Source: Liolophura sinensis (Eukaryota > Mollusca > Polyplacophora > Chitonida > Chitonidae). From it: DNA of 64,000 nt. The stretch covers positions 6,448,001 through 6,512,000 of the forward strand of contig NC_088300.1 in NCBI RefSeq assembly GCF_032854445.1, read 5' to 3'. Of this stretch, positions 19,508 to 44,418 are shown piece by piece. The translations under genes and the position numbers were made by a program. The number at the start of each line of letters is the position of its first letter. Within the stretch, counting starts at the first letter, position 1. Below the pieces are notes generated by a model. That model was not told the origin of the DNA. It saw only the letters and a list, made by a program, of their open reading frames with translations, and did no database searches.

Positions 19508-20688
19508 GTGAGTGCAATATAGCTACATGTATGTATGGAACGCAATGCATGGTTATCTATGTAGACAAGAAATCCATTTCGTATTTCAAACGCACAGCTA
19601 CTTCGATTTATCATCACCAGAAAGGTTCATTTATAGGTCTGCACATATTAGTCTCTAAATTATTTTAAATCTCCTTGGGTTCTGGGCCGCCTAGATTGCC
19701 GTCAGACGTGCCATTTTCTTTACACAGACGGTTGAACTAATTTATTTATTTTAGATGCCTAATGCGCTGTTAATTCACAAGAATATTTGACCGTTAAGTT
19801 ACCCTGGATAATATTGGTCATATTCCATGCGAATAGCTTCATGAAATTCCATCACTTTGGTACTCGTGTGACCATATTTCACTGGGGTTGTGATTTCAGG
19901 GGCTTGTTTTTCGATATGCGAACACACTAGTATAGCCATATTGCAGCTGTGAGAAGCAGAGATGAATTAAGCGCGGTGGAGAAGTAAGAACCTCCAGGGT
20001 GTGGATTGTAAACTTATACCATGTTTCAGAATGTGGGTATTACGTCCATGCCCGACAGAGCCCATTTAGTTTCGATATGTAATGGAAGGAGTAAAGTGTC
20101 ACGCACCACATCGTTTTACGCAGTTTATTACCATTTTAATTATATGTTTATTCGGACAATACATGGCAATGTTAGATCTGATGTAAAGCCAATCCCTACA
20201 GCCAGTCTGGTGCCCGTCTATCATAGCTTTGCTCATGCAGTCTAGGAACTTAAATGTCATCTCTTTCCCTAATTTGTCTACGGAAACAATAATTCTGATA
20301 CGTAGTCAAAAGTTTGACTTCTGCAAGCAATCGGAAGGCCTACATGGGAATGTAGGTTTTAGGCCTATTGAAGATTTAGTTATCGACCCTCATTACCCAA
20401 ACTTAACGAAATCAAAAGGCGACGTCATCATCTCGACGCTGACTGCAGGTTTTGGCTGCAAGGTTAAAAGTCAGTCATGTAAACCTGGACGTCTTCTTCT
20501 TATGTTAACATGTAAACACTCGAAGCGAAAAGTCTACGTTGAGTTTTGATTGCATTCAGATGTGGGGATCATTAAAAGTGCTTTTTCATACCATGTGTAG
20601 GCTAGTTCACCTTAGTTTAGAAATTGCCGTCTATTTTTCATTCCTTACAGATTTTTTTGAGGCAGCGGAACGTTATCGCTTAACAACG

Positions 20689-23600
20689 ATGGGATGTCTG
20701 TTGAAATTCAGAACTAACGTTAATGCGGTGTTCAGTTCGGCGTTTGCTTGGTACGGACGGAGGGTGGGGACTTACCCATGGGTCTTTGTATTGGGTAGTA
20801 TCACAGTGAATGCTTTACTTGGTCTTGGAATCTTGCGACTGACGCCAAAAACTGGGATTGAAGATGTTTACGTGCCAATAGGAAACCAAGCTGCTAACGA
20901 CAGAATCCTGCTAAAAGCGTTGTTTCCGGACAAAAGCAACACCGATTTTTACCAACACCATTTGCCTGATGATGGGAAATACGGTGCGGTTGTATTCCGA
21001 TCCACTGATCTTAAGAATGTGCTCAGAACAGCGGTTCTTGATGAAATAGAAACTGTGTACCAAAGTATCTTGAATATCTCCTTCGCCGACCCTGTCTCTA
21101 ACAGCCAGTTGGACTACAGAAGTGTGTGCGCCAGAAGGTCTGGCAACTGTATCACTGACGGAGATTATGTCTTCTCGGCCGCCTTCAAAACCGATAAGGA
21201 TGCCCAAAATGTGTCCTATCCGAAGTACAATGTACCGGGCTACGGACAGTTGGACTTATCGTCATCCCTAGGACAAGTAGGTACACAGAATGGACTTCTC
21301 CAATCGGCCGGATCCCTAAAAATTAGATTTCACCTTCGCCAGGACTCAGCTAATTCGTCTGAACTCTCCAGTCGCTGGGAGGATGCCTTCATCCGGGCTA
21401 TAGGCCTACCCGCGTTTGGGCAAGGACAGACATTATCAGAGCTGGCGTATGCGACTTCGGACTCCCTAAATGAGGAACTGGAGAAGAACACTGGTGGCGA
21501 TATCAAGTGGTTCTCCCTTACCTTCACCCTCATGATTACGTATGCCTCCATAGCGAGCTCAGGGGGCAACTGGGTGTCGTCCCGAGGGTACCTTGCCTGC
21601 GCGGGGGTTCTGGCGGCCGGCCTTGGCATTGTCTCTGGTATGGGGTTAGTGTCATTATGCGGCATGCCCTTCACAAGTATCGTTGGGGTCATGCCATTTC
21701 TGGTCTTAGGTGAGTATTCTATATTGCAAGTTTAAGAACAAACTGTTTGAAACACCCGACCAACCTTCACGGAGCCAAAACCCGACGTCGAGTTTCTAAG
21801 ATGAGATCAGCCTTCATAACTGAATGAAATCAAACTCTGACGTAGAGTTTTCAAAAAAATGTTTCAGCCCATTTAGGTCTTTTTCCAGGATCTTCCTAAA
21901 TAACTCAGGTTGTATTATTTATTGCCTGTTCCTTTAAAATTTCCTGTAGGCCACATACATGGGGCTTGGTCTTGTAAACGTTTTATCCGTTATTTGTTTT
22001 GTATTTTATAACTGCTTGTTAGATTGTGATATTCGACTTAATTCGGCAAATCATTATCGATAACTGCAGTTCATAAATTGTCATTATATACATAGAATAA
22101 CGGTTAATAATGCCTGCGAAACAATACATACTAAGCGTCAAGTGAAACCAGACGCGCCACTCTTAAATCGGGAGTATCATTTGTTTAGCTTGAATTGGCA
22201 GGGAGATTGCATATGTTTGAAATATTATATTTGGTTCAATTGAACCATTCATGCATGTTAAGCTTGTTGAAGTGAATTAACAACAATTAGTATTAAATAT
22301 ACCAACATTTATTGAGGAACTTTCCCACAATGACGGCTTAGATGCGCGCATGATCGATATTTGTTGTTGAGATTGAAGGATCTGGGAATGGTACTGACGG
22401 CAAACAGAGCCCGACAACTAGACCAATCCATCAGGAATTGTTACCTAGCTGTCACCAGTACTGTACTAAATATAAGCGTCAAGTCCGACATTCATATACC
22501 ATTCGTTGTCCGTAAAAGGCGTTCCAAGTCGATAATCGCAAGATCCATTAAAACCAGTTAAAAGCTTTTGGACTACGAACAAAGATCAGAAGACGACGAC
22601 AAAGCGAATATGACAACAATGTTCATGCACTGAGTGTAACTGGATGGGATAACAGCAAAGGTCCTTGTTAGTGGGATGGCTCAAGCCGAGCTGTTATGTT
22701 GTTTATCCCGAATCACTGGACCGTGTCTCCGAACTTGTGCCATTAATAGGCCTACTACATGTACATATAACAAACACACTTCCCGCTAATTGGCAAGAGT
22801 TTGCGCGATTGTGGAATGTGGAAAAGAATTGTCAAAGCGAAGTGTCATGGTCGTTTATCACAAACCCGTATATGTTGATGTACAAAGTTGTACGCCATTC
22901 GTGAAAACAGATATATCCTTCGTGGCTCATTGGAAATATAAACCAACTGTCCGAAATTTAAGCCGACATATTTTGCGGTGGTTTTAAATACGGTACCCAC
23001 GGTTAGCTCTGTGCTGCCACTAGGGCCATGAAGCTAAAATACTCACACCAGGGAAGTTTTTTGATACGCTTATGGCCAGATAGGTATGCCTTCAGCTGTT
23101 CATGCTCCAAAGTGATAGATCGAGAGCTTGGTACAATTGTCTGAGTGCAGGGCGTGTTGAATGTTTGACAAAAGTGTCCATGTTCTGGACGTGCAAAGTG
23201 TTTGGTATACGTGCCCATATTCTGGACGTCACGTGCAAGTGTTTGATATGTGTTCGTGCTCTGGACGTGCAAAGTGTTTAGCATACGTGTCCATGTTCTG
23301 AATGTAGTGGGGGTTTGATATTAGTGTTCATGTTCTGGGCGTGTTGAGTTTTTGGTATTAGTGTCCATGTTCTGGGCGTGTTGAGTGCTTGATATCAGTG
23401 TCCATGTTGTGGACGTGTTCAGTGTTTGATTTTAGTGTCCATGTTCTGGACGTGTTGAGTGTTTGATATTAGTGTCCATGTTCTGGGCGTGTTGATTGCT
23501 TGACAGAAGTGTCCATGTTAATTCTGGATGTGTTGAGTGTTTGATATTAGTGTCCATGTTCTGCGCGTGTTGAGTGTTTGATATTAGTGTCCATGTTCTG

Positions 23601-26600
23601 CGCGTGTTGAGTGTTTGAAATTAGTGCCCATGTTCTGGGCGTGTTGATTGTTTGACAGAAGTGTCCATATTAATTCTGGGCGTGTTGAGTGTTTGATATC
23701 AGTGTCCATGTTGTGCGCGTGTTGAGTGTTTGAAATTAGTGCCCATATTCTGGGCGTGTTGAATGTTTGATATTAGTGTCCATGTTCTGGGCGTGTTGAG
23801 TGTTTGATATTAGTGTCCATGTTCTGGGCGTGTTGAGTGTTTGATATTAGTGTCCATATTCTGGGCGTGTTGAGTATTTGATATTAGTGTCCATGTTGTG
23901 GAGGTGTTGATTGTTTGACAGAAGTGTCCATGATAATTCTGGATGTGTTGAGTGTTTGATCTAAGTGCACATGTTCTGGACGTGTTGAGTATGTGATATA
24001 AGTGTCCGTATTCTGTCCCAGAAGAGACATGTCCCACAGTCCGAGTTCTGACTTTATTTGATTGGTGTTTTAACGCCATACTCAAAAATATTTCAGTTAT
24101 ATGGCGGCGGCCAACATTATGATGAGGGAAACCCACGACCATCCGCAGGTTGCCGGAGAGGAAGCAAGCATGAACTGGAATTGAACTCAGAGCGACCGCA
24201 TTGGTGGGAGGCTCTATGGTGTCCGTGTTTTGGACGTGTTGAGCGTTTGATATAAGCACCCATGTGCTGGACGTGTTGAGTGTTTGATATAAATGTCCAA
24301 GTTTTGGACGTGTCATGTGTTTGAATGTACTGTAAACATGTGGAGAGTTTTAGGCCTAATGGTTTGGAAAAAGCTGCTCAGTCAATACAACAGGAAGTTT
24401 GCTACCGTTTAAGACAAACCCTTCGTCGAATAACAATCACTCGTAAACTATGACAACTTCGCCACCCTGTGAAATAATGTCGTTTCCGCTGGCCTGGGTT
24501 ATCAGATTTATTTGTTTGTTTGTCTTTTGGCCGATATAACGAAACTATCAATATACAGACTGTGAATTATTTCATACAACACAGACACGTCACGTAATTT
24601 AGATTGTCTACCAGAATATCTAAAAGCTTCCGACAATTATTGTGATCTGTCTTTGTCGGGACAGGTATCGGCGTTGACGACACGTTCGTCATGCTGTCTG
24701 GTTGGTCGGAGACTCACGGAATGTCTGGGATCCCAGAGCGCCTCGCTGTCAGTCTGGCCAGCAGTGGACTCTCTATCACACTCACATCCCTCACCGACGT
24801 CATCGCCTTCTGCATCGGAGCCAGCAGCCCCTTCCTTAGTGTGAGAGCCTTCTGTGTCTATACAGGTAGGACAGTTTCTCCTTACTGAGAGTGAGAACCT
24901 TTTGTGTCTATACAGGTAAGACAGCTACCCCTTCCAGAGTGCGAAAGCCTTCTGTGCCTATACAGGTAAGACAGTGGCCCCTTCCTGAGTGTGAGAACTT
25001 TCTTTGTCTATACAGGTTTCCACATCTCTCAAGATGGCACACACCTTACTTATATGCGTTGAACATGTATAATGTCTCGTACTGTGCATTATAGGGAATG
25101 TTTAAAATTTAAACATCGTTTTTGTTGTCATTTACAGGCGTGGCCATCTTGTTCTGCTATGTCAACCAAATCACCTTATTCGCCGGATGTCTCGCTATAC
25201 ACGCAAGAAGAGTAGAAAGAAATCTCCACATAGTCACCTGTATGAAGGTCCCATCAAAAAGAGAAGTATTGAATGCGGAACAAGCGCCTAAGACACCTGT
25301 AAGCGAAAGTTCCACAATCCCCGGGGACACACAAGCCTTTGAGAGGGATCCAAGTCAAGATCATTCAGCTGGAACCAACCCGAGGACTGATGACGTCACC
25401 AATAATCACAGACGTCCGCCCCCCAAAGTTGTGCAGAGTACAGAATTGGCTCAACCTGGTAGGATGCCAGTTGCAACGAAATGTAAGCTGTGTTTCTGTG
25501 TTGGAGAGCCACCGCAAAACAAATATGAAGACGAAAGTGTTTTTGAAAAAATTCCAAGATACTTCCTCCCCAAAATAATCAGCTCTTCACCTGTGAAGAT
25601 AATTATTTGTCCCCTATACTTCGTGTACATAGGAGTGTCCATTTGGGGAGTGACGGACATGGAACAGGGGCTTGATGTTAAAAACCTGGTCCTTCCAACA
25701 TCTTACTATAGATTCTCACAATGGAATGAAGATTATTTTGACTCTCAATTTATGATAACCTTTATCATCAATGGCGATCTTGCGTATCACGAAAATCCAA
25801 CTCAGGCCAGGCTGGGCGATTTTATCCGTAAAGTTACGCAAGACAAATACATTCGCGACGACTTCCTGTTGTCCTGGATGGAGGCTTATCACGTGACCCC
25901 TTTCCTGAACACTACATCAGAGGCAGACTATATAGCAGGGTTCAAGTCGTTTTTAGCTTACAGGCCCGAATTTCAAAATGACGTTAACTTCAATTTAGAC
26001 TTTTCCAAAATATTGTCATCGAGATTCTACTTAAAGACAGTTGGCATCACAAGCAGCATGCGACAAGGGGATATGATGAGGCAGATGAGAGAACTTGCGA
26101 AGAATTCCGGACTTCCCATCACAGCATTCTCTCCTCCATTCATTTACTTCGAGCAGTTCGTTGTCATTCTATCAAACACCCTTCAAACTGTGGGCATTGC
26201 GGTATGCGCCATGTTTGTTCTCTCCTTTTTCTTCCTACCTTATCCGTTAATAGTCCTACATATTACAATTACTATGACGACCATCATGTTAGGGATTTTC
26301 GGTTTTATGCATTTCTGGGGCCTGAGTCTGAGTTCGGTGACTATGATCCACCTTGTCATGTCGGTGGGATTCTCCATCGACTACTGTGCCCACATTTGTC
26401 ACGCAGTCATGCACTGCCTCCCTGAGGGCACCAGTCGGCAGCACTGCGTGTCTCTGGCTCTGGGGAGAGTCGGGGGACCCATACTCAACGGCGCCTTGTC
26501 ATCCCTCATTGGAGTCATCATGCTGGTTAATTCCGAGTCTTACATCTTTAAGTCATTCTTTAAGATGATGCTCCTGGTGATAGCATTCGGACTGCTTCAT

Positions 26601-26777
26601 TCAATACTCATTTTGCCGGCGTTTCTTTCAGTTTTGGGTCCGCTGCCCTCGGACAATGAAGAACGCGTGACCAATGGGGTCAAAAAGCTAGCAGAGAAAA
26701 ATTTGCCTTTGGGCTTAAAACTTCAGACGGATTCGCAAAATGCAGAGTGTTCAGTACAGTGTCAACCAGTTACATAA
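20689..26777 (+). CDS. PTCHD3: Patched domain-containing protein 3-like (RND family), 3 coding exons
   Basis: Coding exons 20689-21709, 24665-24865 and 25138-26777 join in phase to give 953 codons. The protein has the two-fold RND layout of Patched relatives. TM1 lies near residues 25-45, followed by a large extracellular loop with NISF and NVS glycosylation sequons and paired Cys. A sterol-sensing-type membrane block then runs into the signature GIGVDDTFVML (about residue 341). A cytosolic linker follows, then a second membrane half with the matching signature SVGFSIDYCAHICHAVM and the SSLIGVIMLV/SYIFKSFFKMMLLV block. Such proteins are thought to move or sense sterols or lipophilic ligands. 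The Patched family is certain; assignment to PTCHD3 rather than another PTCHD or PTR relative is likely but not proven. The start MGCLLKF was chosen because it is the family-typical N-terminus and lies just after an acceptor. An in-frame upstream extension to 20539 exists but crosses that acceptor. Confidence 0.9.
21710..23130. other. first part of intron 1 of the Patched-like coding region, unique sequence
   Basis: No repeat or exon is recognised before the 37-bp minisatellite begins. Confidence 0.5.
23135..24335. repeat. 37-bp minisatellite, about 25-28 copies
   Basis: The unit is gtgtccatgttctgggcgtg followed by ttgagtgtttgatatta, with variants such as gacagaag in place of gatatta. The array sits in an intron of the Patched-like gene and is interrupted near 24052-24215 by a reverse-oriented SINE. 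Confidence 0.93.
24052..24215 (-). mobile_element. SINE family A fragment inserted in the 37-bp minisatellite
   Basis: On the minus strand it runs from the head-proximal accaatgcggtcgctctgag to the 3' end aaaacaccaatcaaat. Part of the middle is deleted. Repeat units lie on both sides, so the SINE entered after the array existed. Confidence 0.85.
24816..25015 (+). repeat. 50-bp tandem duplication of an exon end and its 5' splice site
   Basis: The last bases of coding exon 2 plus its donor (ttctgtgtctatacag|gtagga) recur at exact 50-bp intervals, giving GT donors at 24866, 24916, 24966 and 25016. The second and third are followed by gtaaga, a better consensus than the first (gtagga); the fourth is gtttcc. 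Only the first keeps the protein open, because the frame meets a TGA at 24886-24888 immediately downstream. See the matching finding. Confidence 0.92.
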
Positions 26778-32447: not shown

Positions 32448-35400
32448 CTACTGCATGCTGATAGCATTACAGTAAGTGTTGTAGACAGCAAGTGTTGTAG
32501 CCTGGCACATTCCTGTGTTACTGGGTACTGATGTCCCACACACACTGGTATTAGCTAATCTTGGCACCTGGTGCATTCCAGTGTTACTTAACAGTGGAGT
32601 GTGGGACATTCCCGTGTTATTTGGAAGTGATGTCTGGTACATTCCAGTGTTATTCGGAACTGACGTTTGGTACATACTAGCTGGCTTCGGTGCCATGCGC
32701 ATTCCACTGTTGCTTGGCACTGATGTTTGGTACACACCAAAGTAACTGGGTCTTGGAGAATGGTACATTCCAGTACTGCCCGGCAATGATGTTTGGTACA
32801 TATCGGTGCTACTTGGCTTTGGCGCCTGGTACATTCCAGTAAAGTAACTACTTGGCACTGAGGTTTGGTACAAATCCGAGCTACTTGGCCTTGGCGCCCG
32901 GTACATTGCAGTATTGTTTGGCATTAATATTTGATGCATATCGGTACCTCTTGGCCTTGGCGCATGGTACATTCCGGTACTGCTTGCCACTGATGTTTGG
33001 AACATAGCGGTGTTACTTAGCCTTGGCGCCTGGTACATTTCAGTAATGCTTGGCACTGATGTTTGATACATATCGGTGCTACTTGGCCTTGGCGCCTGGT
33101 ACATTCCAGAACTGCTTAGCACTGATGTTTGCTCCATATCAGTATTAATTGGCCTTGAGGCCTGGTACATTTCTATACTGTTTTGCACTGATATTTGGTA
33201 CGTATCAGTGTTGCTTGGTGCCTCGTACATTCCAGTGTTATTTGGCACTGGTGTTTGGTACATACTAGTGTCACTTGATTTTGGTGTCTGGCCCATGCCG
33301 GTGTAGGTGGACAATGGAGTCTGGTATGTATTTGGATTGTTTTGTCTTGGAGTCTGATACATTCCTGGGTTACTTGGAATTGGCGTGTGTAACATACCAG
33401 TGTTACTTAGTCTTGGAGGCTGGTACATTTGACCGGTGTTACGTGGCACTGACGTGTGATACATATTAATGTTACTTGACAATGGAGTTTGGTGCAGATC
33501 ATTTTCAGTCATTGCTGAGACCTGAATTCCCATGCCTGAAGATGGCAGGTTCTGGTATACAGCGGCATTATTGCCCTGAACTAGGTTATGGTACATCACT
33601 GTGCTGTTGGCTTGTTTCGGACACCGGTATCCCAGGTTTATTGCGGGCAGTGAATGCTTGTACGTCGTTGGATACCGAAACATGCTTGTGTTGCTGGTCA
33701 CTGTACTCTCGCACATCACAGGTTCAACAGGAACAGCTAACTCTGGGTTGACATACCAGTTATTGCTGGATTCGCCGACTGAATACTGGTTCTGGTAGAT
33801 CCACTGATCGCTCAGTATATCAGAATCATATGCTGGAGAACGGTTGTTCAGGCCACAATCTATTACCTCAGGAAAGATCTCAGTCGACTCTTGATACGAA
33901 GCAATTAAACAATCATTAAACCTTTGCGATCTGTCATTAGGCGGACTCAGGTCCATGTCAAACCCAACAGTTTGTAAGGCTGGATCCTTGTCAGAATGAC
34001 AGGAACTCGGCCCACCCAATCGACGCAACATCTCATCACTGAGACTTGGCTGAATGCTACACAAGTCATAGTCAAAATGATGAGTATCGATGGGAGAACC
34101 TGTACAAAGCTCGTTCAGCTCCACTTGACGTCGGTCATCTGTGTGTGGAGTCGCGATGATTTTCGCCAGGGTTTTTTCAAAATTCTTCCGCCTTGAACTG
34201 TTTTTCTTACGTCTACATTTTTGACTCCTGATTTTAGGTGAGCCACTTCCATCTGTCTTGAACTGGTTCACACCAAATTCATGTTCTTTTGAAGTTGTAT
34301 GCTTAGTTTTGACTATCTTTTGAACAAGGTTTTGACTCTTTTTCTTTTGTACGACATTCATGGTTTTCCTTCTTAAAGTTTTTCCACCTGTAGAATTCTG
34401 TGGTTTTCCTTTTTGACCTTTGTTTTTCTTGGGGTTAGAACAATTACTTTTAGGTACAGGCTGAGTTTCCATTAATTGATGATCATCAATTTTTCCTCTG
34501 GAAAAGAGTTTCCTTCTCATTTTTCTTTGTTTCATAACAGTTTCCCCAAAGCATGGCGCTTTCTCGGCGTCCAGATGACTACTTCCTGTTTTATTACTTC
34601 TGTAACACCTTTTGGCTCTTCTATGAGATACTTTCACCTTGAATGGACATGATGCTCTCGAAGACGTTTGGGAGTGATAAACTGTGGCTTGAGTATGGTC
34701 CCTTTTTGCGCCGAAGGGCGATACTGCAATACGACAGGGCTTAAGCAGGAACTCGGTGTCAGAATGACAGGGCCCTTTACCCAGTTTGTGGGGGCGCTCC
34801 CTTACATCACTAGTATCAGACTGTGCTGTGGCACCAGGAGAGTCGGCCAAAAGGATGTTATCTGCACTGATCTTCTTTTCAGTCTCTTTACGCCGTTTTT
34901 TTCTGGACTTGCTGGAGCGTTTTCTTGAAGAACTACGAAGTGAGAATAATCTTAGATCTGGATATGCAAAGTCTGTACGTCTATTTGAAGAACATCTTCT
35001 TCTTGACTTTCTTCTCGATGAATTTAGATCATCAACACAAGACACGACCTCATCTCCAACTCTTTGATCAACTGGGGGGCTTGCGTTGACTCTCTTTCTG
35101 GACGTCTTGACACCTTTACCTTCTTGTTCAGTGTCACACTGAATTTCATCTTGTTTTTGAATCATACAGTTCCAACAGGGTTCTTCAGGAATCCAGATGT
35201 AGCTTCTTTGGAGCATTTTTGTGTCAGAATAACACATTCTTTCTGTGACAACATCGGGGCATGGTTGCTCTCCATCCTCATAGGTTGTTTCAGTACTAGA
35301 ATGATTGTCTGTTGGTTTCTGAACTTGCCAGCTCCTGGATGAGCAGTCTGATTTTGGACGTCCACACTCTACCTTTTGTTTCAAGTTAATTGAGAGGCTC

Positions 35401-38400
35401 TTAGAAACGGAGTGATGAACCACAACTTCAGTGTCAGAAAAACTGTGTCTTAGTTTGGTTATGTCCTGGCAAGTCATCAGTTGAACAGGATGAAATGCTC
35501 TAGCTTCACTATCACTGTGACAGTCCCTCACACAATCTAAACCAGATGTTTTTTCAGCATCTAACAGTATGTGATCTAGTTCCTGCTGCTTGAAGCTTGC
35601 ATCAGTTGTAAAACAAGGACTACAGTAATAGAAGAGTGCATCTGTGTCAGAATATGCAGGCCTTTCTTCGTAATCATACACCACTTCCTCATTTGGTTCA
35701 AACAGAGACCTTGCACAAAAGTATTGATCGTCTTCCTTCAAATCACTTGGTCCTCCCTTCCTATCACCGCTAATGTCTGAAGTTAGTTCAGTTTCAACAT
35801 ATTCTGCCTGTGTGTTTCTGATATTATGACACCGTGCCATAGATTTTCTGGGGATCCCAATCTTCTCAGCGGGATCTATCTCGTTATTGCTACTCTGGCT
35901 GTGGTCGCATTCTGCGCCCACACAATGACTTATGGATGACTCTGTTCCAGGATCAAAACTTGCTTCTGACTCTGATTCTCTCAACTTTACCTTTGATCTT
36001 AAAGGGTATACCTGGACTGACTTACTCATGGAATCATTCTCAGAAGCCTGCTTTGACCTTCGTCTTTTAGGCATTTTCTCTGAACGAAGTCTGTTGAGTC
36101 TCCTGCAGATTCTTGCAAGCTTTCTTTTGACTTTTGGCTTTCTAGTTGTATGGCAAGGTTCTAAGGCTGCATCAGAATTTGTATCCCCTCTGCCATCAGT
36201 AGTGGGTAATTTAGTCCAGGTTGAAGATAATCCCAGGAACTCAGCCCAAGCTTTCTTGTCATTTGTGAAAAACACACGCCGATCTTCTGCAATCAGCTTC
36301 TCAGTGTTAAAGGAGAGATGAAAACCATTTTCTTCATCATCCCAACCTACAACAAAAAGCAAAACAAAGATAACACCAAAAATAAAAAAACAGAAGAAAT
36401 TTATAATCCCAAGCCAATTACCATAAATTAATGGAAGCACGAAAGCATTTCTCCAATTGAGTATTTCATTGATTTCAATGTCATACATAAGAATTTTTCA
36501 CTTATATTTATGACAGTCAGACTAACAGTGGAGGAACTTTTAGCATGACACTGGAGAACCTTTCCATTTGTGACATATGCCATATAGGTGGAAGGCAAGA
36601 GGGCTTGCAGCCAAGTCCACATAGAATCCTGTTGCTTTTCTTGTTTCATCAAACCATGCAATGGCGTCAGGTGAAGAGCAGGAAGGCAAAGAGTACTTTC
36701 CACAGTCAGTGTTTACCAGAAGACAAGTCTTCATATAACAAGTACATTTCAGCTCTTTCCTGTATGTGCCTATGTTCTTTGTTCATATCCGAGGTGCTTA
36801 CAAATTGCCTGAATCATCTCACTTAATGCTTCCATAATTTCATAGCTTCCAGGATGAACACATGAATGGGTCTTGAACAACTGCAAAGTATTGTTCGCTA
36901 TGAAGCTGATGTCCATCCAACCAGCACTTATGTACTCTAAAAAAAACAGTAGTTACCAAAGAATTATTCTGACTTTATTTTGACATCATACCTTCAGAAC
37001 GAGTCACTGTAATTTTGTGTATTTTTTTCAGTAAAGTAGTTATTATTTTGTAGGCAATGTTCATATTAATACGTGTAGATAATATAGTATGGCACAAAAT
37101 TACCCCTAGAATATGAACTTTCCCACCAGTCTCTTTGTCTAGCATTCACACTATCAGTAGACCAGTATCCACTGTCTTGTCGCAATGTTGATCTCACGGG
37201 CCCAGCCTCTCGTCCTTCACAGTATGTTCGAGTTTTCTTCACAATTTCCACTTTTCTTCCAAATGGATTTTCGCCTTAAACACAGAAAACAAAGTTTTAT
37301 ATTGTACAGAACATCGTGCTCATAATTATTTTATCATAAGGATAAAGTTCACACTCAAGAAGTTTTCACTTACTTGACGGTGCTCAGTTTCACGAGTTGA
37401 GAAATTCAATGCCCCACTAAACCACAGACCTTTTGCAATTAGGTTACCGTTGAACCGTTTCCTAATACTGTTGAACCATTTCCTGATACCGTTGAACCGT
37501 TTCCTGATTATGATGTACATATATGCCCCTCTTAACGATGGAGGAATATTCGAATTAACATTAGACATACAACAGTTATAGGCTGATTATTATCACGAGG
37601 GCTTCAAGAAGATAGAGAGTTCGGGGAACTGCAATTGTTCAAAACTAAAACTAGGATCTGCCTTACCTTCAGGTGTGGCCCTGGCTGGTCCCTGCCAGCT
37701 GTCGAGAAGTCTGTCAGTCTCACAATTTCTCCTCTGAGAACGGTGGGATAGCAAAAGGTCTGGTGCTAAAACAAGACACATATCACCAACTCAAGTTCCA
37801 CAAGAAATCAGTACAAGATTTTATTTCATCATTGGCCTCAAATACTGTGATAATGTTAAAGTTACTGATATATTTTACTGTGAACTCCAAAAAATTATCT
37901 TCAACCAGTTTAGACAGACAACAATTAATCCAATAAATGACCACTTTTACCAAAGGATCTTGTGGATTTTTTTTTTTTTTAGCTATTTAGGCCCTTTGAT
38001 TTATTTGTTTATTAGATTATCTGTTTAATTGGTATTCATGGGTGGAGGAAACCTGATTGCCAACATTCAATCTCTGTCCTTCAGCAGTTATCTCACATTT
38101 AATCACAATCCTCCATCAGTTATCTAACATTTAACCACCATCGTTCAGCAGGTATCTAACACTTAACAACCATCTTTCAGCAGGTGTCTAACACTTCACC
38201 ATTCTTCAGCAGGTATATAACACTTCACCATTCTTCAGCAGGTATCAAACACTTAAAACACTGTCCTTCAGAAGGCACTGGCCATTTAATCACTGTCCTT
38301 CAGCAGGTATCTAACACTTAAGCCCTGTATCTAAAAACATTTAACCCTGTCCTCATTAAAGCCCCTGTCAAACCAGTGGGAGGTGGATTGGATTTATTTA

Positions 38401-41400
38401 TTTGATTGGTGTTTTATGCTGTACTCAAGAACATTTCACTTATATGACGGCGGCCAGCATTATGGTGGGAGGAAACTAGGCAAAGGCCGTCGAAACCCAT
38501 GACCGCCCGGACTTGAACTCAATCACCACATTGGTGAGAGGTTCCAGGGTCATTGCGTGTGGCTGGCATGCGCGGACACATGGATTTGAGACAGCAACCC
38601 TTCTGGTCAACAGTTAACACTTCAGCCAGAGTGGATCCAAGAAAATTTGGGTCAAGTTACATTTGTCAATATGTCTATAATGACACATACTGAAATCCAT
38701 TGTCACAATATGAAGGCAATCATGGATGAATTAAGGAGGCAAATCATGGATGTTGTGTGAAATCATGCGCACATGCTGATCAAGCCATATTCATGTACTA
38801 GGCTGCTTCATCAGCTTTCCCATTTATCAGGAAAATTGGTGTAAACCTTAATGATAAAATTTAAATTTGAATTCTGTTTCCTAATATTTAGATAATGTTG
38901 CATGGTAATATCTTTCTCAGGTTTTCCTACATCAAATTTGATTTAATACCTACGAAATTATAAAACTATAGCATACAAACCTTAACAAAACTGCTGTATG
39001 TAATTTATATTTTAGAAACAATTCATATCATGGTGATATTAAATATAGGTGAATGCTTGTAAAATGTCCAAGATCATCTTGACCCATGGATTATACATGT
39101 ATCAACATATGATATGTACCATTCCCTGTACGGTTCATTATTTTCTTAACTCAAATATGCATGTACCATTCCCATCCCATCGTTGAGTATCATTCTCTCA
39201 CTGTATATCATTTTCATCACTCTGTATTGTTTCCATCACTGTGTGTCATTCCCATCTCTCTGTATCATTCCTCTCGCTCTGTAATGTTTCCATCTCTCTG
39301 TATCATTCCTCTCACTCTGTATCATTCCCATCACTCTGTATCATTCCCATCACTCTGTATCATTCCTCTCACTCTGTAACATTTCCATCACTCTGTATCA
39401 TTCCCATCACTCTGTATCATTATTCTCACTCTGTATCATTCCTCTCACTTTGTATCATTCCCATCACTCTGTATCATTCCCATTACTCTGTATCATTCCT
39501 CTCACTCTGTAATGTTTCCGTCACTGTGTATCATTCCCATCACTCTGTATCATTCCTCTCACTCGATAACGTTTCCATCACTGTGTATCATTTCCATCCC
39601 TGTCTATCATTACTGTCTGTATCATTCCCCTCACTCTGTATCTTTCCCCTCGCTGTGTACCATTTCCCTCACTCTGTATCATTTCCATCTCTGTCTATCA
39701 TTATTCTGCATCATTCCCCTCACTCTGTATCTTTCCCCTCACTGTGTATCATTTCCAACCCTGTCTATCATTACTCTGTCTGTATCATTCCTCTCACTAT
39801 GTATCGTTTCCATTATTCTGTATCATTCCCCTCACTGTGTATCATTTCCCTCACTCTGTATCATTTCCCTCCCTGTCTATCATTACTCTGCCTGTATCAT
39901 TCCTCTCACTATGTATTGTTTCCATTATTCTGTATCATTCCTCTCACTGTGTATCATTTCCCTCACTCTGTATCATTTCCATCCCTGTCTATCATTACTC
40001 TATCTGTATCATTCCTCTCACTATGTATCATTTCCATTATTCTGTATCATTACCATCTCTGTATATCATCCCCCTCCACTGTGTATCATTCCCTCCACTG
40101 TGTATCATTCCCCTCACTGTTTATCATTCCCCCACTGTGTACCATTCCCTCCACTGTGTATCATTCCCCTCATTGTGTATCCTTCCCCTCACTGTGTATC
40201 ATTCCCTCCACTGTGTATCATTCCCCTCACTGTTTATCATTCCCCTCACTGTGTACCATTCCCTCCACTGTGTATCATTCCCCTCATTGTGTATCCTTCC
40301 CCTCACTGTGCATCATTCCTCTCACTGTGTATCATTCCTCTCACTGCGTCATTCCCATCACTCTGTATCATTCCCCTCATTCTGCATCATTCCCATCACT
40401 ATGTATCATTCCCCTCATTGTCTGTCATTCCCCCCCCCACTAGCTATCACTCCTCTCACTGTCATTCCCCCCACTGTGTATCTTCCCCCCACTGTGTATA
40501 ATTTCCCTCACTCTGCATCATTCCCTCCACTGTGTATCATTCCCCTCATTGTGTATCCTTCCCCTCACTGTGCATCATTCCCCTCACTGTCTATCATTAC
40601 TCTGTCTGTATCATTCCCTCCACTGTGTATCCTTCCCCTCACTGTGTCATTCCCCCCGCTAGGTATCATTCCTCTCACTGTGTCATTCCCCTCACTCTGT
40701 AACGTTTCTATCATTCTGTATCTTAACCATCACTGTGTATCATTCCCCTCCACAGTGTATGATTTCCCTCACTGTGTGTCACTGCCCCCAATCTATCATT
40801 ACCATCACTGTGTATCATTCCCCACACTGTGTATCATTCCTCCCACTGTGTATCATTCCTCCCACTGCATATCATTCCCTTCACTGTGTATCATTTCCCT
40901 CATTGTGTATCATTCCCCTCACTGTGTATCATTCCCCCCACTGTGTATCATTCCTCCCACTGCTTATCATTCCCTTCACTGTGTATCCTTCCCCTCACTG
41001 TGTATCCTTCCCCTCACTGTGTGTCATTCCCCTCACTCTGTATCATTCTCCTCACTGTATCATTTCCATCATTCTGTATCATTCCCCTCACTGTGTATCA
41101 TTCCCCTCACTGTGTATCATTCCCCTTACTGTGTATCATTCCCTCATTGTGTTTCATTCCCCTCACTGTGTATCATTCGCCTCATTGTGTATCATTCCCC
41201 CAGTGTGTATCATTCCCCCCAGTGTGTATCACTCCCCCCCTCTCAGTGTGCATCATTCCCTCCTCTGTGTATCATTCCCCCACTGTGTCATTCCCTCCAC
41301 TGTGCAATATCCCCTCACTGTGAATTATTCCCCCCACTATGTATCATTCCCCCATTGTGGATCATTCCCCCACTGTGCATCATTCCCCCACTGTGCATCA

Positions 41401-44400
41401 TTTCCCCATTGTGTATCATTCCCCCATTATGTATCATTCCCCTCATTGTGTATCATTCCCCCACTGTGTATCATCCCCCACTGTGTAATATCCCCCTCAC
41501 TGTGTATTATTCCCCCCATTGTATATCAGTCCCTCCATTGTGTATCAGTCCCCCCAATGTGTATTATTCCCCCCACTGTGTATCATTCCCCCACTGTGTA
41601 TCATTCCCTCCACTGTGTATCATTCCCCCCACTGTGTAATATCCCCCTCAGTGTATTATTCCCTCATTGTATATCATTCCTCTCATTGTGTATCATTCCT
41701 CTCACTGTGTATCATTCCCCTCACTGTGTATCATTCCCTCCACTGTGTATCATTCCCCCCATTGTGTATCATTCCCCTCATTGTGTAACAGTCCTTTCAT
41801 TATGTACAGTATCATTCCCCAGCTTCTTTTATTCCTCTCCCTTCCATCAATCGAAAACAGTGTAACATTCTTTACTCCATCATTTTCAAGCTTCTAACGG
41901 TCTAATTTCTTTCACAATTCTCATACATTGTAACATTTCTGCATTCAATGTCATTTCCTGGCTTTTATTTTCCCTCCAACTTCCCTCCAAAACACTGAAA
42001 CATTATTCTCTTTGCATTATTTCCCATTCCCATTCAAGGCTGTAGGTAAATACCCAATATTTTGTAAACCATCCCTCTAGAAAAAGTGGTAAGATGCATA
42101 TTGTCCATGTGATATAATATCAGACAAGTTTAGAACTTTGGTCATACAATGGACAAAATTTAGCTGGTCTGAGCCATGTCTCTTTCTCTAAAGGGGTGTT
42201 TTCACATCAGTTTGAAAAAGCCACTGTAAAGCCATATAGGACAGGGTTAAGCATGTTGATCTGCATTTAATGTTTTACTTTGGTACTGAAGGCACATACA
42301 TACAACCATGGTTGTAAGGTTGTCCTCCTTTGGCCTGTAATCTAGATGACCTACATGTACAGGTAACGCTCACCTGAATCACGGGTCACTTTATCTTGTA
42401 ACCTAGATAGCCAGAGTCAATGACTTTCTGGCAGTTGATTTAATGGTTGTATTTAGGACTAATGTAGATAGTTTCCCACATAGGGTTACAATATCATCAC
42501 AATCCTGAGTGATTACTGTGCTTTAGTCTGAAATTGCATTAGCTTTATAGAGAGCCACACCCAGATTTTCTACCGATTTAAATCGATTAACAAAGGATTC
42601 TCTCCATCATGTGAACCTACAAACCCAAGAATATTTACACTTTTTATTTATTTATTTATTTATTTATTTATTTGATTGGTGTTTTACGCTGTATTTAAAG
42701 AGTATTTCACTTATATGACGGCGCCCAGCATTATGGTGGGTGGAAACTGGGCAAAGCCCGTGGGAAACCCACGACCATCCGCAGGTTGCTGAAAGACCTT
42801 CCCACATACGGCTGGAGAGGAAGCCAGCATGAGCTGGACTTGAACTCACAGCGACCGCATTGATGAGAGACTCCTGGGTCATTAGGCTACGCTAGCGCGC
42901 TAACCAACTGAGCCATGGAGGCCCCTTACACTTTTTATTTCACTCATATTGTGGTCAGGTTTATGGGTTGTGCCAAATGGCACTGGATAAAACTTTTTTC
43001 AGGTTTACAACTTTATACTCGAGTGAGACATTATGAAATCTTAAGTATTCAGACTGTACAGACATTATTCTTACAGCTTTACCCAGTAAAAACAAATTCC
43101 AAATGCAACAATGAAAAGACGACAAGATAACATAGCAGTTCCTGGGTCAATCCCTAACACACATGCATGTAACAATGTACATGCAACTAGAGGGCTGCTG
43201 GGGTATGCTGGCAGCATGAGTAATCAACGCAGTGCAATTTGCCAAAAAAAAACCCCAAAAAACACCTATTTAGTGGTAAGTTTCATATCTTTATCACATT
43301 TCTGAAACTTTCGTCCAAGTGTTATCACCAAGTGATTATTTGATGTCCTCCTTGCTGGAAATATTCAAGTGTCAGAACAATTAGTGTGATGCATGCCAGA
43401 TTTTGTAAACTTTGTAGGAATTTTTTGTAAAGATTAAGAATGTCCTCATAATATTGCTAGCTTTTTTTCGGTTATTTATATAACTGCTTAACAATCACAA
43501 CTAATTACCTTATTCAGAATTAAATATTCAGAATAAGGAGGAAGCCGAATATAAGAGAGGATTATACAAAAAAATGCATCCAGTGAAACAAACAAAAGTG
43601 ATGGCCACTGTACACAATTGAATTGTAATCCTTAATCCTTCAAATTTTTGACATCTGATATGCTATTTTTAGCAAAAATATATGTAACTGTAAATGGAAT
43701 ACACAATCTCTTTTTTTCATACGGCTTGTACATTTAACGAATAAAATATACATATATTTATTTTCAAAAAAAAGGTACCGAAAGATGCACTTTTTTGCTT
43801 TCAGTATTACTAATGCCTGTTTAAAAAAATAGAAGAATATACATGTTAGTGAAAGAAAGAATTGCTTACGTGTTGACGGGCTGAATGGCTGTGGGTATTT
43901 CCTGTCATGTGGTAAGTGCATAGAACTAAGCCTACATGTATGCGATTTCATTCCGCGGATTTTTATCGTGCGTCCCGAAGTTCTTGTTGTGAAACGTTGA
44001 TACCAGCTTCTTGGATCAATATCACGTTGGTAAACTAGGTGAACTTTAACTGTTCGACAAACGCCGATTTTCTCGAGCTGTTGGTACACCCACAGGCTCC
44101 GGTTGTTCAGCGTCCAGTACTCATCAAAACGGAAGATGATCAAGAGCGGTTGCCTGTCTTCTATCCTCGCCCGCCCCTCAGCCAAGTCCCAAAGGGTGTC
44201 TACAAGGGAATTACCATCCCTAAAATACGGCCCGATAGAGTCCTGCGAGAACCTTATGTCAGAAGGTTTTAGGAAAAACGTCTTCATGGTCAGTTGAAAC
44301 ACATCTATGTACAACTGTCAATGAACATGTACCAACTTTCGATTCTAAAACCCTAAATCTGCGAACGTTACACCTAACCTCGGCGGGGATTATGTGCCTG

Positions 44401-44418
44401 TGAGACACGTGCTTCCAT
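32448..44418 (-). CDS. large ParB/sulfiredoxin-like, 11-residue-repeat protein, uncharacterised
   Basis: Unnamed gene of about 1662 codons. Exons on the minus strand: 44418-44379, 44304-43870, 37765-37667, 37274-37104, 36936-36802, 36769-36560, 36346-32448. All introns are phase 1. Exon 2 encodes a compact module (FFLKPSDIRFSQDSIGPYF, then LLIIFRFDEYWTLNNRSLWVYQQLE) that resembles ParB/sulfiredoxin-fold domains; this is my reading of the motif, not a search result. Exons 4-6 encode a region I do not recognise (GFYVDLAASPLAFHLYG, AEFLGLSSTW). The last exon (1298 codons) has basic clusters (KMPKRRRSKQ, KRRRK), recurring SDT/SDS-acidic motifs after C, Y, F or H, and about 29 copies of an 11-residue repeat of type MYQTSVPSNTG/MYQAPRPSSTD. 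The basic runs suggest a nuclear protein. Weak points: the start (no upstream in-frame ATG; the frame stays open back to 44625), the 32-nt intron at 36801-36770, and the weak donor AAAG|gttctc after 36560. Confidence 0.72.
32505..33470 (-). repeat. 33-bp coding repeats (11 residues), about 29 copies
   Basis: Each unit follows M-Y-Q-T/A-S/P-V/R-P-S-x-T-G/D. Through the middle, two types alternate (MYQTSVPSSTG and MYQAPRPSSTD), so the higher-order period is 22 residues (66 bp). Units are diverged but lengths are nearly always 11, with one 13-residue unit and 9-residue units. The frame is kept open throughout, as expected for selected coding sequence. Confidence 0.9.
37430..37510. repeat. short tandem repeat, three copies of about 22 bp
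   Basis: ccgttgaaccgtttcctgat-type unit repeated three times, in an intron of the minus-strand gene. Confidence 0.8.
38060..38340. repeat. degenerate minisatellite (about 25-33 bp unit)
   Basis: Repeated cttcagcaggtatctaacac with variable spacers (ttaaccaccat, ttcaccatt), about nine copies, in intron 2 of the minus-strand gene. Confidence 0.8.
38391..38571 (-). mobile_element. SINE family A, internally deleted copy
   Basis: On the minus strand it contains the head-side caatgtggtgattgagttca, the body ccaccataatgctggccgcc and the tail aaacaccaatcaaataaata. The segment around ctccggccgta is missing. Confidence 0.85.
39165..41830. repeat. 19-bp satellite array, about 2.7 kb
   Basis: The unit is tgtatcattcccctcactg (19 bp), with early copies closer to tgtatcattcccatcactc, giving well over 100 units. 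Because 19 is not a multiple of three and the plus-strand unit lacks a stop in any frame, all three plus frames stay open for hundreds of codons with a 19-residue periodicity. The array lies in the large intron 2 of the minus-strand gene, so its transcript would be purine-rich. Confidence 0.96.
41831..42634. other. intronic DNA, nothing recognised
   Basis: The first 200 bases are tatcattc-like and grade out of the satellite; the remainder is unique. Confidence 0.45.
42650..42925 (-). mobile_element. SINE family A, intact copy with 15-bp target-site duplication
   Basis: Complete element on the minus strand, from ggggcctccatggctcagttgg to an (aaat)n tail. A perfect direct repeat ttacactttttattt flanks it at 42635-42649 and 42926-42940. 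It is a good family type copy of about 276 bp. It lies in intron 2 of the minus-strand gene. Confidence 0.95.
42941..43869. other. intronic DNA of the minus-strand gene, nothing recognised
   Basis: Unique AT-rich sequence between the SINE and the ParB-like exon. No additional exon is seen. Confidence 0.45.

What the first reader, a model, noticed from the sequence alone, without database searches (positions are those of the whole stretch)
32448..44418. Unnamed animal gene fusing a ParB/sulfiredoxin-like module to a long repeat protein
The phase-1 exon chain joins a compact N-terminal module, whose LNNRSLWVYQQLE resembles the GGCHRYAAYQQL-type motif of sulfiredoxin/ParB folds, to an unrecognised middle domain and a 1298-codon last exon with basic clusters and 11-residue repeats. 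ParB-like folds are mainly known as bacterial CTPase/nuclease or sulfiredoxin domains. I know of no named animal protein with this architecture.
Basis: partly seen in the sequence, partly recalled or inferred. Interest (0 to 1): 0.72.

Follow-up and report, generated by a model that had tools for sequence, protein, structure and literature searches.

The report
Animal gene carrying a toxin-type ParB-fold domain
An unnamed animal gene begins with a small domain that is clearly related to the tip of certain bacterial toxins and is predicted to fold like the bacterial DNA-partition protein ParB; the family was already known from animals, but this copy has a changed binding motif and is probably attached to a long basic, repetitive tail.

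Summary
Exon 1 (44287-43870, minus) encodes a compact domain (residues 3-115) with no Pfam, PHROGs or NCBIfam match. Fifteen loci encode relatives. A profile made from 13 of them, without the animal, scores it 50.4 bits against 8.8 for the best of 1000 shuffles. AlphaFold2 plus Foldseek place the domain in the ParB/sulfiredoxin fold, nearest nucleotide-bound ParB. In all 15 loci the domain ends its reading frame; 4 of 8 long frames scanned carry RHS or PT-HINT toxin parts, and 13 of 15 loci have a DUF7660 gene right after it, a likely immunity protein. This fits Tox-ParBL1, described in 2012 and already listed from metazoa (PMC3482391). The animal keeps RFSQ but reads NNRS where 15 of 15 relatives read DNRR, which aligns with ParB's GERR. 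Four further phase-1 exons extend it to 1573 residues; the join to exon 1 lacks transcript proof. Best reading: a domesticated toxin domain, probably altered, in a nuclear protein.

The parts
43870..44287 (-). Exon 1: ATG start, ParB-fold (Tox-ParBL1-like) domain, phase-1 donor
43943..44287 (-). Residues 1-115: the ParB-fold domain as aligned with bacterial relatives
44243..44254 (-). RFSQ motif (residues 12-15); RF[ST]Q in 13 of 13 aligned relatives
44096..44107 (-). NNRS (residues 61-64); DNRR in 15 of 15 relatives, aligned with ParB GERR
37766..43869 (-). Proposed intron 1 (6.1 kb)
   Evidence: join not shown by transcripts
39187..41787 (.). 19-bp minisatellite, about 139 copies, inside proposed intron 1
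37667..37765 (-). Exon 2 (99 bases, phase 1)
37104..37274 (-). Exon 3 (171 bases, phase 1)
36802..36936 (-). Exon 4 (135 bases, phase 1; weaker donor)
32448..36346 (-). Exon 5 with stop: basic low-complexity region and repeat tail
36057..36146 (-). Basic cluster, residues 342-371 (NLS-like by eye)
34893..34940 (-). Basic cluster, residues 744-759
34188..34235 (-). Basic cluster, residues 979-994
32480..33464 (-). 11/22-residue repeat tail (MYQTSVPNNTG type)

Best explanation
An animal gene whose first exon encodes a ParB-fold domain of the Tox-ParBL1 kind, ultimately shared with the C-terminal tips of bacterial polymorphic toxins. Shown: homology to the bacterial tips; predicted ParB fold; the toxin context of the bacterial copies; the changed motif. 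Inferred: the domain opens a 1573-residue protein made of a short middle region, a long basic region and a repeat tail, which works in the nucleus or on nucleic acid. Inferred: the domain no longer acts as a free toxin; with part of the phosphate-binding motif changed and no immunity-gene relative in the window, it most likely serves as a nucleotide- or nucleic-acid-binding (or purely structural) module.
For: tblastn E 2e-7 and 2e-2 in plasmids; 12 relatives confirmed among 78 pattern matches in 84,980 prokaryote species, and 1 among 113 in viral contigs. Leave-one-out profile 50.4 bits, best of 1000 shuffles 8.8; hhalign of animal against bacterial profile 98.4%, E 4.5e-15. AF2 of the animal domain pTM 0.74, blocks of residues 11-40 and 61-70 above pLDDT 90; Foldseek ranks 1-16 are ParB, Noc, SbnI, sulfiredoxin and Atu1540. 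AF2 of a bacterial relative pLDDT 91.5, pTM 0.84; ranks 1-42 are ParB, Noc, KorB, sulfiredoxin and Atu1540, best E 2.6e-4. RHS/PT-HINT parts in 4 of 8 long frames, DUF7660 next door in 13 of 15 loci. DNRR in 15 of 15 relatives, NNRS in the animal. Basic clusters. No DUF7660 relative in the window (best E 2.9).
Against: The exon 1 to exon 2 join rests on phase and splice signals only. The animal model alone gives no Foldseek hit at E <= 0.001 (best 0.029), and the single animal sequence against a ParB profile gives E 0.58. Sequence searches of solved structures found no ParB. Four of 8 long bacterial frames show no toxin family in Pfam. Nuclear location and loss of activity are guesses from composition and two residues; the remaining Asn-Arg is kept. 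One animal sequence only.
Confidence: 0.62

Rival explanations
1. An active enzyme: the domain is still an NTP-dependent nuclease or phosphotransferase, used against invading DNA or in cell death.
For: Toxin origin and fold; R63, N62, RFSQ and the FTT block are kept. PMC3482391 (section 25) argues a nuclease role for ParB-type toxins; PMC5512222 (passages) cites DNase or NTPase reports for ParB domains.
Against: The arginine aligned with ParB's GxxR is Ser and the preceding Asp is Asn; PMC12704722 (section 8) reports that changing the GxxR arginine to Ala abolished nucleotide binding in its controls.
Confidence: 0.2
2. Two genes: exon 1 ends a short protein of its own or splices elsewhere, and 37765-32448 belongs to a separate gene.
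For: 6.1 kb gap with a 2.6 kb minisatellite; exon 1's frame stays open to 43640; exon 2 coding score favours another frame.
Against: Good donor at 43869 (10 stronger of 454) and acceptor at 37765 (15 stronger of 594), matching phase, uninterrupted 1573-residue frame.
Confidence: 0.22
3. A chance resemblance, or a recent bacterial insert or contaminant.
For: Only one animal sequence was available.
Against: 50.4 bits against 8.8 for the best shuffle; the exon lies in an intron-bearing animal locus with a splice donor; closest relatives are only 26-35% identical.
Confidence: 0.03

Closest known systems
Tox-ParBL1 (Zhang et al. 2012, PMC3482391)
   Same: ParB-related toxin tip with conserved [ST] and an [NT][RT][RT] motif, bacterial RHS/HINT context, reported in metazoa and other eukaryotes.
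   Different: Here motif reads N-R-S; bacterial partners here are DUF7660, where the 2012 table lists Imm-SUKH and Imm44. Their alignment was not available to compare.
Canonical ParB/Noc CTPase (PF02195)
   Same: Predicted fold; DNRR of the family aligns with GERR.
   Different: No PF02195 match; no HTH or dimerisation domain matched; animal gene.
Sulfiredoxin (animal Srx)
   Same: Same superfamily fold, lower in the structure ranking.
   Different: Separate lineage according to PMC3482391; no sequence match found.
DdrB-like ParB domains (PMC5512222)
   Same: Another conflict-related ParB/Srx branch (passages).
   Different: Phage polyvalent proteins; no PHROGs match here.

Membership tests
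ParB/sulfiredoxin fold | Structural match to solved ParB/Srx domains | tested here: met
   (animal model best E 0.029; bacterial relative best E 2.6e-4)
ParB/sulfiredoxin fold | PF02195 sequence match | tested here: not met
   no family at E <= 10
Canonical ParB CTPase | GxxR arginine of the P motif | tested here: not met
   aligned residue is Ser64; alignment-based
Canonical ParB CTPase | HTH and C-terminal dimerisation domains, ParA partner | tested here: not met
   no Pfam match in residues 1-139, 140-365 or exon 5 apart from a sub-cut-off Toxin_5 at E 0.025; ParA not searched beyond nine neighbouring frames
Tox-ParBL1 | Homology to bacterial polymorphic-toxin tips of ParB type | tested here: met
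   with toxin context
Tox-ParBL1 | N-terminal conserved [ST] | tested here: met
   Ser14, S or T in 13 of 13 relatives; that this is the published position is my inference
Tox-ParBL1 | [NT][RT][RT] motif, last two mostly R | tested here: inconclusive
   animal N-R-S: two of three positions fit; relatives N-R-R in 15 of 15
Tox-ParBL1 | Direct alignment to the published type sequence | not tested
   type sequence and supplementary alignment not fetched
Sulfiredoxin | Active-site cysteine and peroxiredoxin repair | not tested
   no sulfiredoxin alignment was made
Tox-ParBL1 or ParB enzymes | NTP binding or nuclease activity | not testable with these tools
   needs purified protein

The most novel reading that the evidence does not exclude
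An animal lineage turned a bacterial killing domain into the N-terminal nucleotide-sensing or DNA-associated head of a large nuclear repeat protein, changing the toxin motif so that no immunity protein is needed. This would be a second animal ParB-fold line beside sulfiredoxin, one that a 2025 survey by PF02195 would not have found.
Probability: 0.3. Interest if true: 0.65.

Novelty: new member of a known kind. Interest (0 to 1): 0.42.

Why it matters
Eukaryotic Tox-ParBL1 proteins have been a table entry and a few sentences since 2012; the searches here for the name found that paper and two others whose titles are unrelated and which I did not open. This locus gives a concrete animal gene model, a predicted structure, a bacterial context and a specific motif change that can be tested. 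The 2025 ParB-fold survey (PMC12704722) searched eukaryotes with PF02195 at its curated cut-off, which this domain does not reach, so such proteins may be overlooked. A side result, DUF7660 as the likely immunity partner, gives a function to a family of unknown function.

Tried and rejected
Sequence routes that found nothing useful: Pfam, PHROGs and NCBIfam on exon 1; phage records gave 10 Gordonia phage hits at E 0.3-0.8 over 35% of the query, taken as chance; viral contigs with the single sequence, 12 pattern matches and no relative; solved-structure sequences, Poz1 and GldN at E 0.25 or worse, taken as chance. Middle region residues 140-365: only a sub-cut-off PHD_5 match (E 0.023), rejected. 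Exon 5: sub-cut-off Toxin_5 (E 0.025), rejected. An extra exon at about 36769-36557, open in the right phase, was rejected for very poor splice scores and a 33-base intron. A second copy of the domain in the window: none found. Codon-position test of the repeat tail: not significant on disjoint pairs. Breadth in bacteria: of 396 genomes drawn from the phylum of G010, 1 matched, G010 itself; at most 11 candidates per genome were scored. A short-sequence literature search for the SINE tail found no paper. In the ParB comparison I used 9 of 10 fetched loci; L035 was dropped because my motif filter found no segment in it. In one search the neighbour genes were picked by a filter on their ends; the 13 were all tested against Pfam separately.

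Full report
The gene. On the minus strand, five exons (44287-43870, 37765-37667, 37274-37104, 36936-36802, 36346-32448) read through without a stop for 1573 residues; every junction is phase 1 and GT-AG. Most of the splice sites are among the strongest of the region, two of them the strongest; the exon 4 donor is middling. No transcript was available, so the join of exon 1 to exon 2 over 6.1 kb, which holds a 2.6 kb minisatellite, is inferred. In-frame coding scores exceed the other forward frames for exons 1, 3, 4 and each third of exon 5, but not for exon 2.

The N-terminal domain has bacterial relatives. No curated family matched exon 1. tblastn in plasmid records found a Sinorhizobium chiapasense place (E 2e-7, residues 1-114) and a Streptomyces globisporus place (E 2e-2). 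An alignment of the three found 12 relatives among 78 pattern matches in 84,980 prokaryote genomes, from Planctomycetes-type, Bacteroidia, Actinomycetes, Clostridia-type and Alphaproteobacteria records by their titles, and one viral-collection contig whose copy is nearly identical to the Acetivibrio one. The scan works by short patterns, so 12 is a lower bound. A profile from the 13 non-plasmid relatives, without the animal, scores the animal 50.4 bits; the best of 1000 shuffles scores 8.8.

Fold. AlphaFold2 on the animal domain with 14 sequences gave pTM 0.74 and mean pLDDT 77.3, with a poor stretch around residues 81-90 and beyond 111. Foldseek against the PDB gave no hit at E <= 0.001, but ranks 1-16 are ParB, Noc, SbnI, sulfiredoxin and Atu1540 (recalled as a member of the same superfamily); best 6sdk, E 0.029, probability 0.96. 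A bacterial relative modelled with the same set gave pLDDT 91.5 and pTM 0.84, and its ranks 1-42 are ParB, Noc, KorB, sulfiredoxin and Atu1540, three at E <= 0.001, best 7bnr with E 2.6e-4. In viral models the named top hits include ParB-like and ParB/sulfiredoxin proteins, none at E <= 0.001. hhalign of the bacterial profile against nine ParB sequences gave E 4.4e-4 (probability 33.6%) and put DNRR on GERR; the single animal sequence against the same ParB profile gave E 0.58. The fold thus rests on the animal-bacterial homology plus the structure comparison, not on direct animal-ParB sequence similarity.

Bacterial context. In 15 of 15 loci the domain is the end of its reading frame. Eight long frames were scanned: PT-HINT or RHS families above cut-off in four (L002, L005, L010, L013), nothing in four (L003, L004, L008, L009). 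Directly downstream lies a DUF7660 gene in 13 of 15 loci, each Pfam-confirmed; the two exceptions, L008 and L015, are nearly identical to each other and carry another small gene without a Pfam match. A toxin tip followed by a small partner is the standard polymorphic-toxin layout (PMC3482391). No paper in the library names DUF7660.

What it is called. [quoted passage not shown] The present family fits: RF[ST]Q and DNRR. I could not compare directly with the type sequence or the supplementary alignment.

What changed in the animal. At residues 61-64 the animal reads NNRS; all 15 relatives read DNRR. By the hhalign register the last residue corresponds to the ParB GxxR arginine, whose change to alanine abolished nucleotide binding in the tested proteins of PMC12704722 (abstract, sections 6-8 and passages seen). 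This suggests loss or change of activity; the preceding Asn-Arg and the FTT block remain. Whether other animals share it is unknown here.

The rest of the protein. Residues 140-365 and exon 5 match no family above cut-off. The middle is acidic (pI 5.6), the long region after it basic (pI 9.2) with Lys/Arg clusters that look like nuclear localisation signals, and the tail carries 11/22-residue repeats. From this I infer a nuclear, nucleic-acid-associated protein; this is inference.

Verdict. The kind of system is known; this is a new member with a notable motif change.

Noticed in passing
window 20509-26777 (+): Exons of a Patched/NPC1-like sterol-sensing RND protein (Patched SSD E 1.1e-11; best solved match Patched-1, E 9.5e-30).
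   Followed up: partly
L001-L007 and L009-L014, directly downstream of the toxin domain: DUF7660 (PF24693) genes adjoin the ParB-type toxin tip in 13 of 15 loci: a likely cognate immunity family.
   Followed up: yes
window 39187-41787: A 19-bp minisatellite of about 139 copies creates spurious long open frames (up to 689 codons) on the plus strand.
   Followed up: partly
window about 42640-42930 and 38390-38600 (minus): Two related interspersed repeats ending in AATAAATAAA-type tails, the first with a tRNA-like start; recalled as resembling mollusc-type SINEs. ARAGORN called no tRNA in the window.
   Followed up: no
L008 1719-2430 and L015 2992-3704: A variant toxin tip followed by a different small gene with no Pfam match, possibly another immunity family.
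   Followed up: partly
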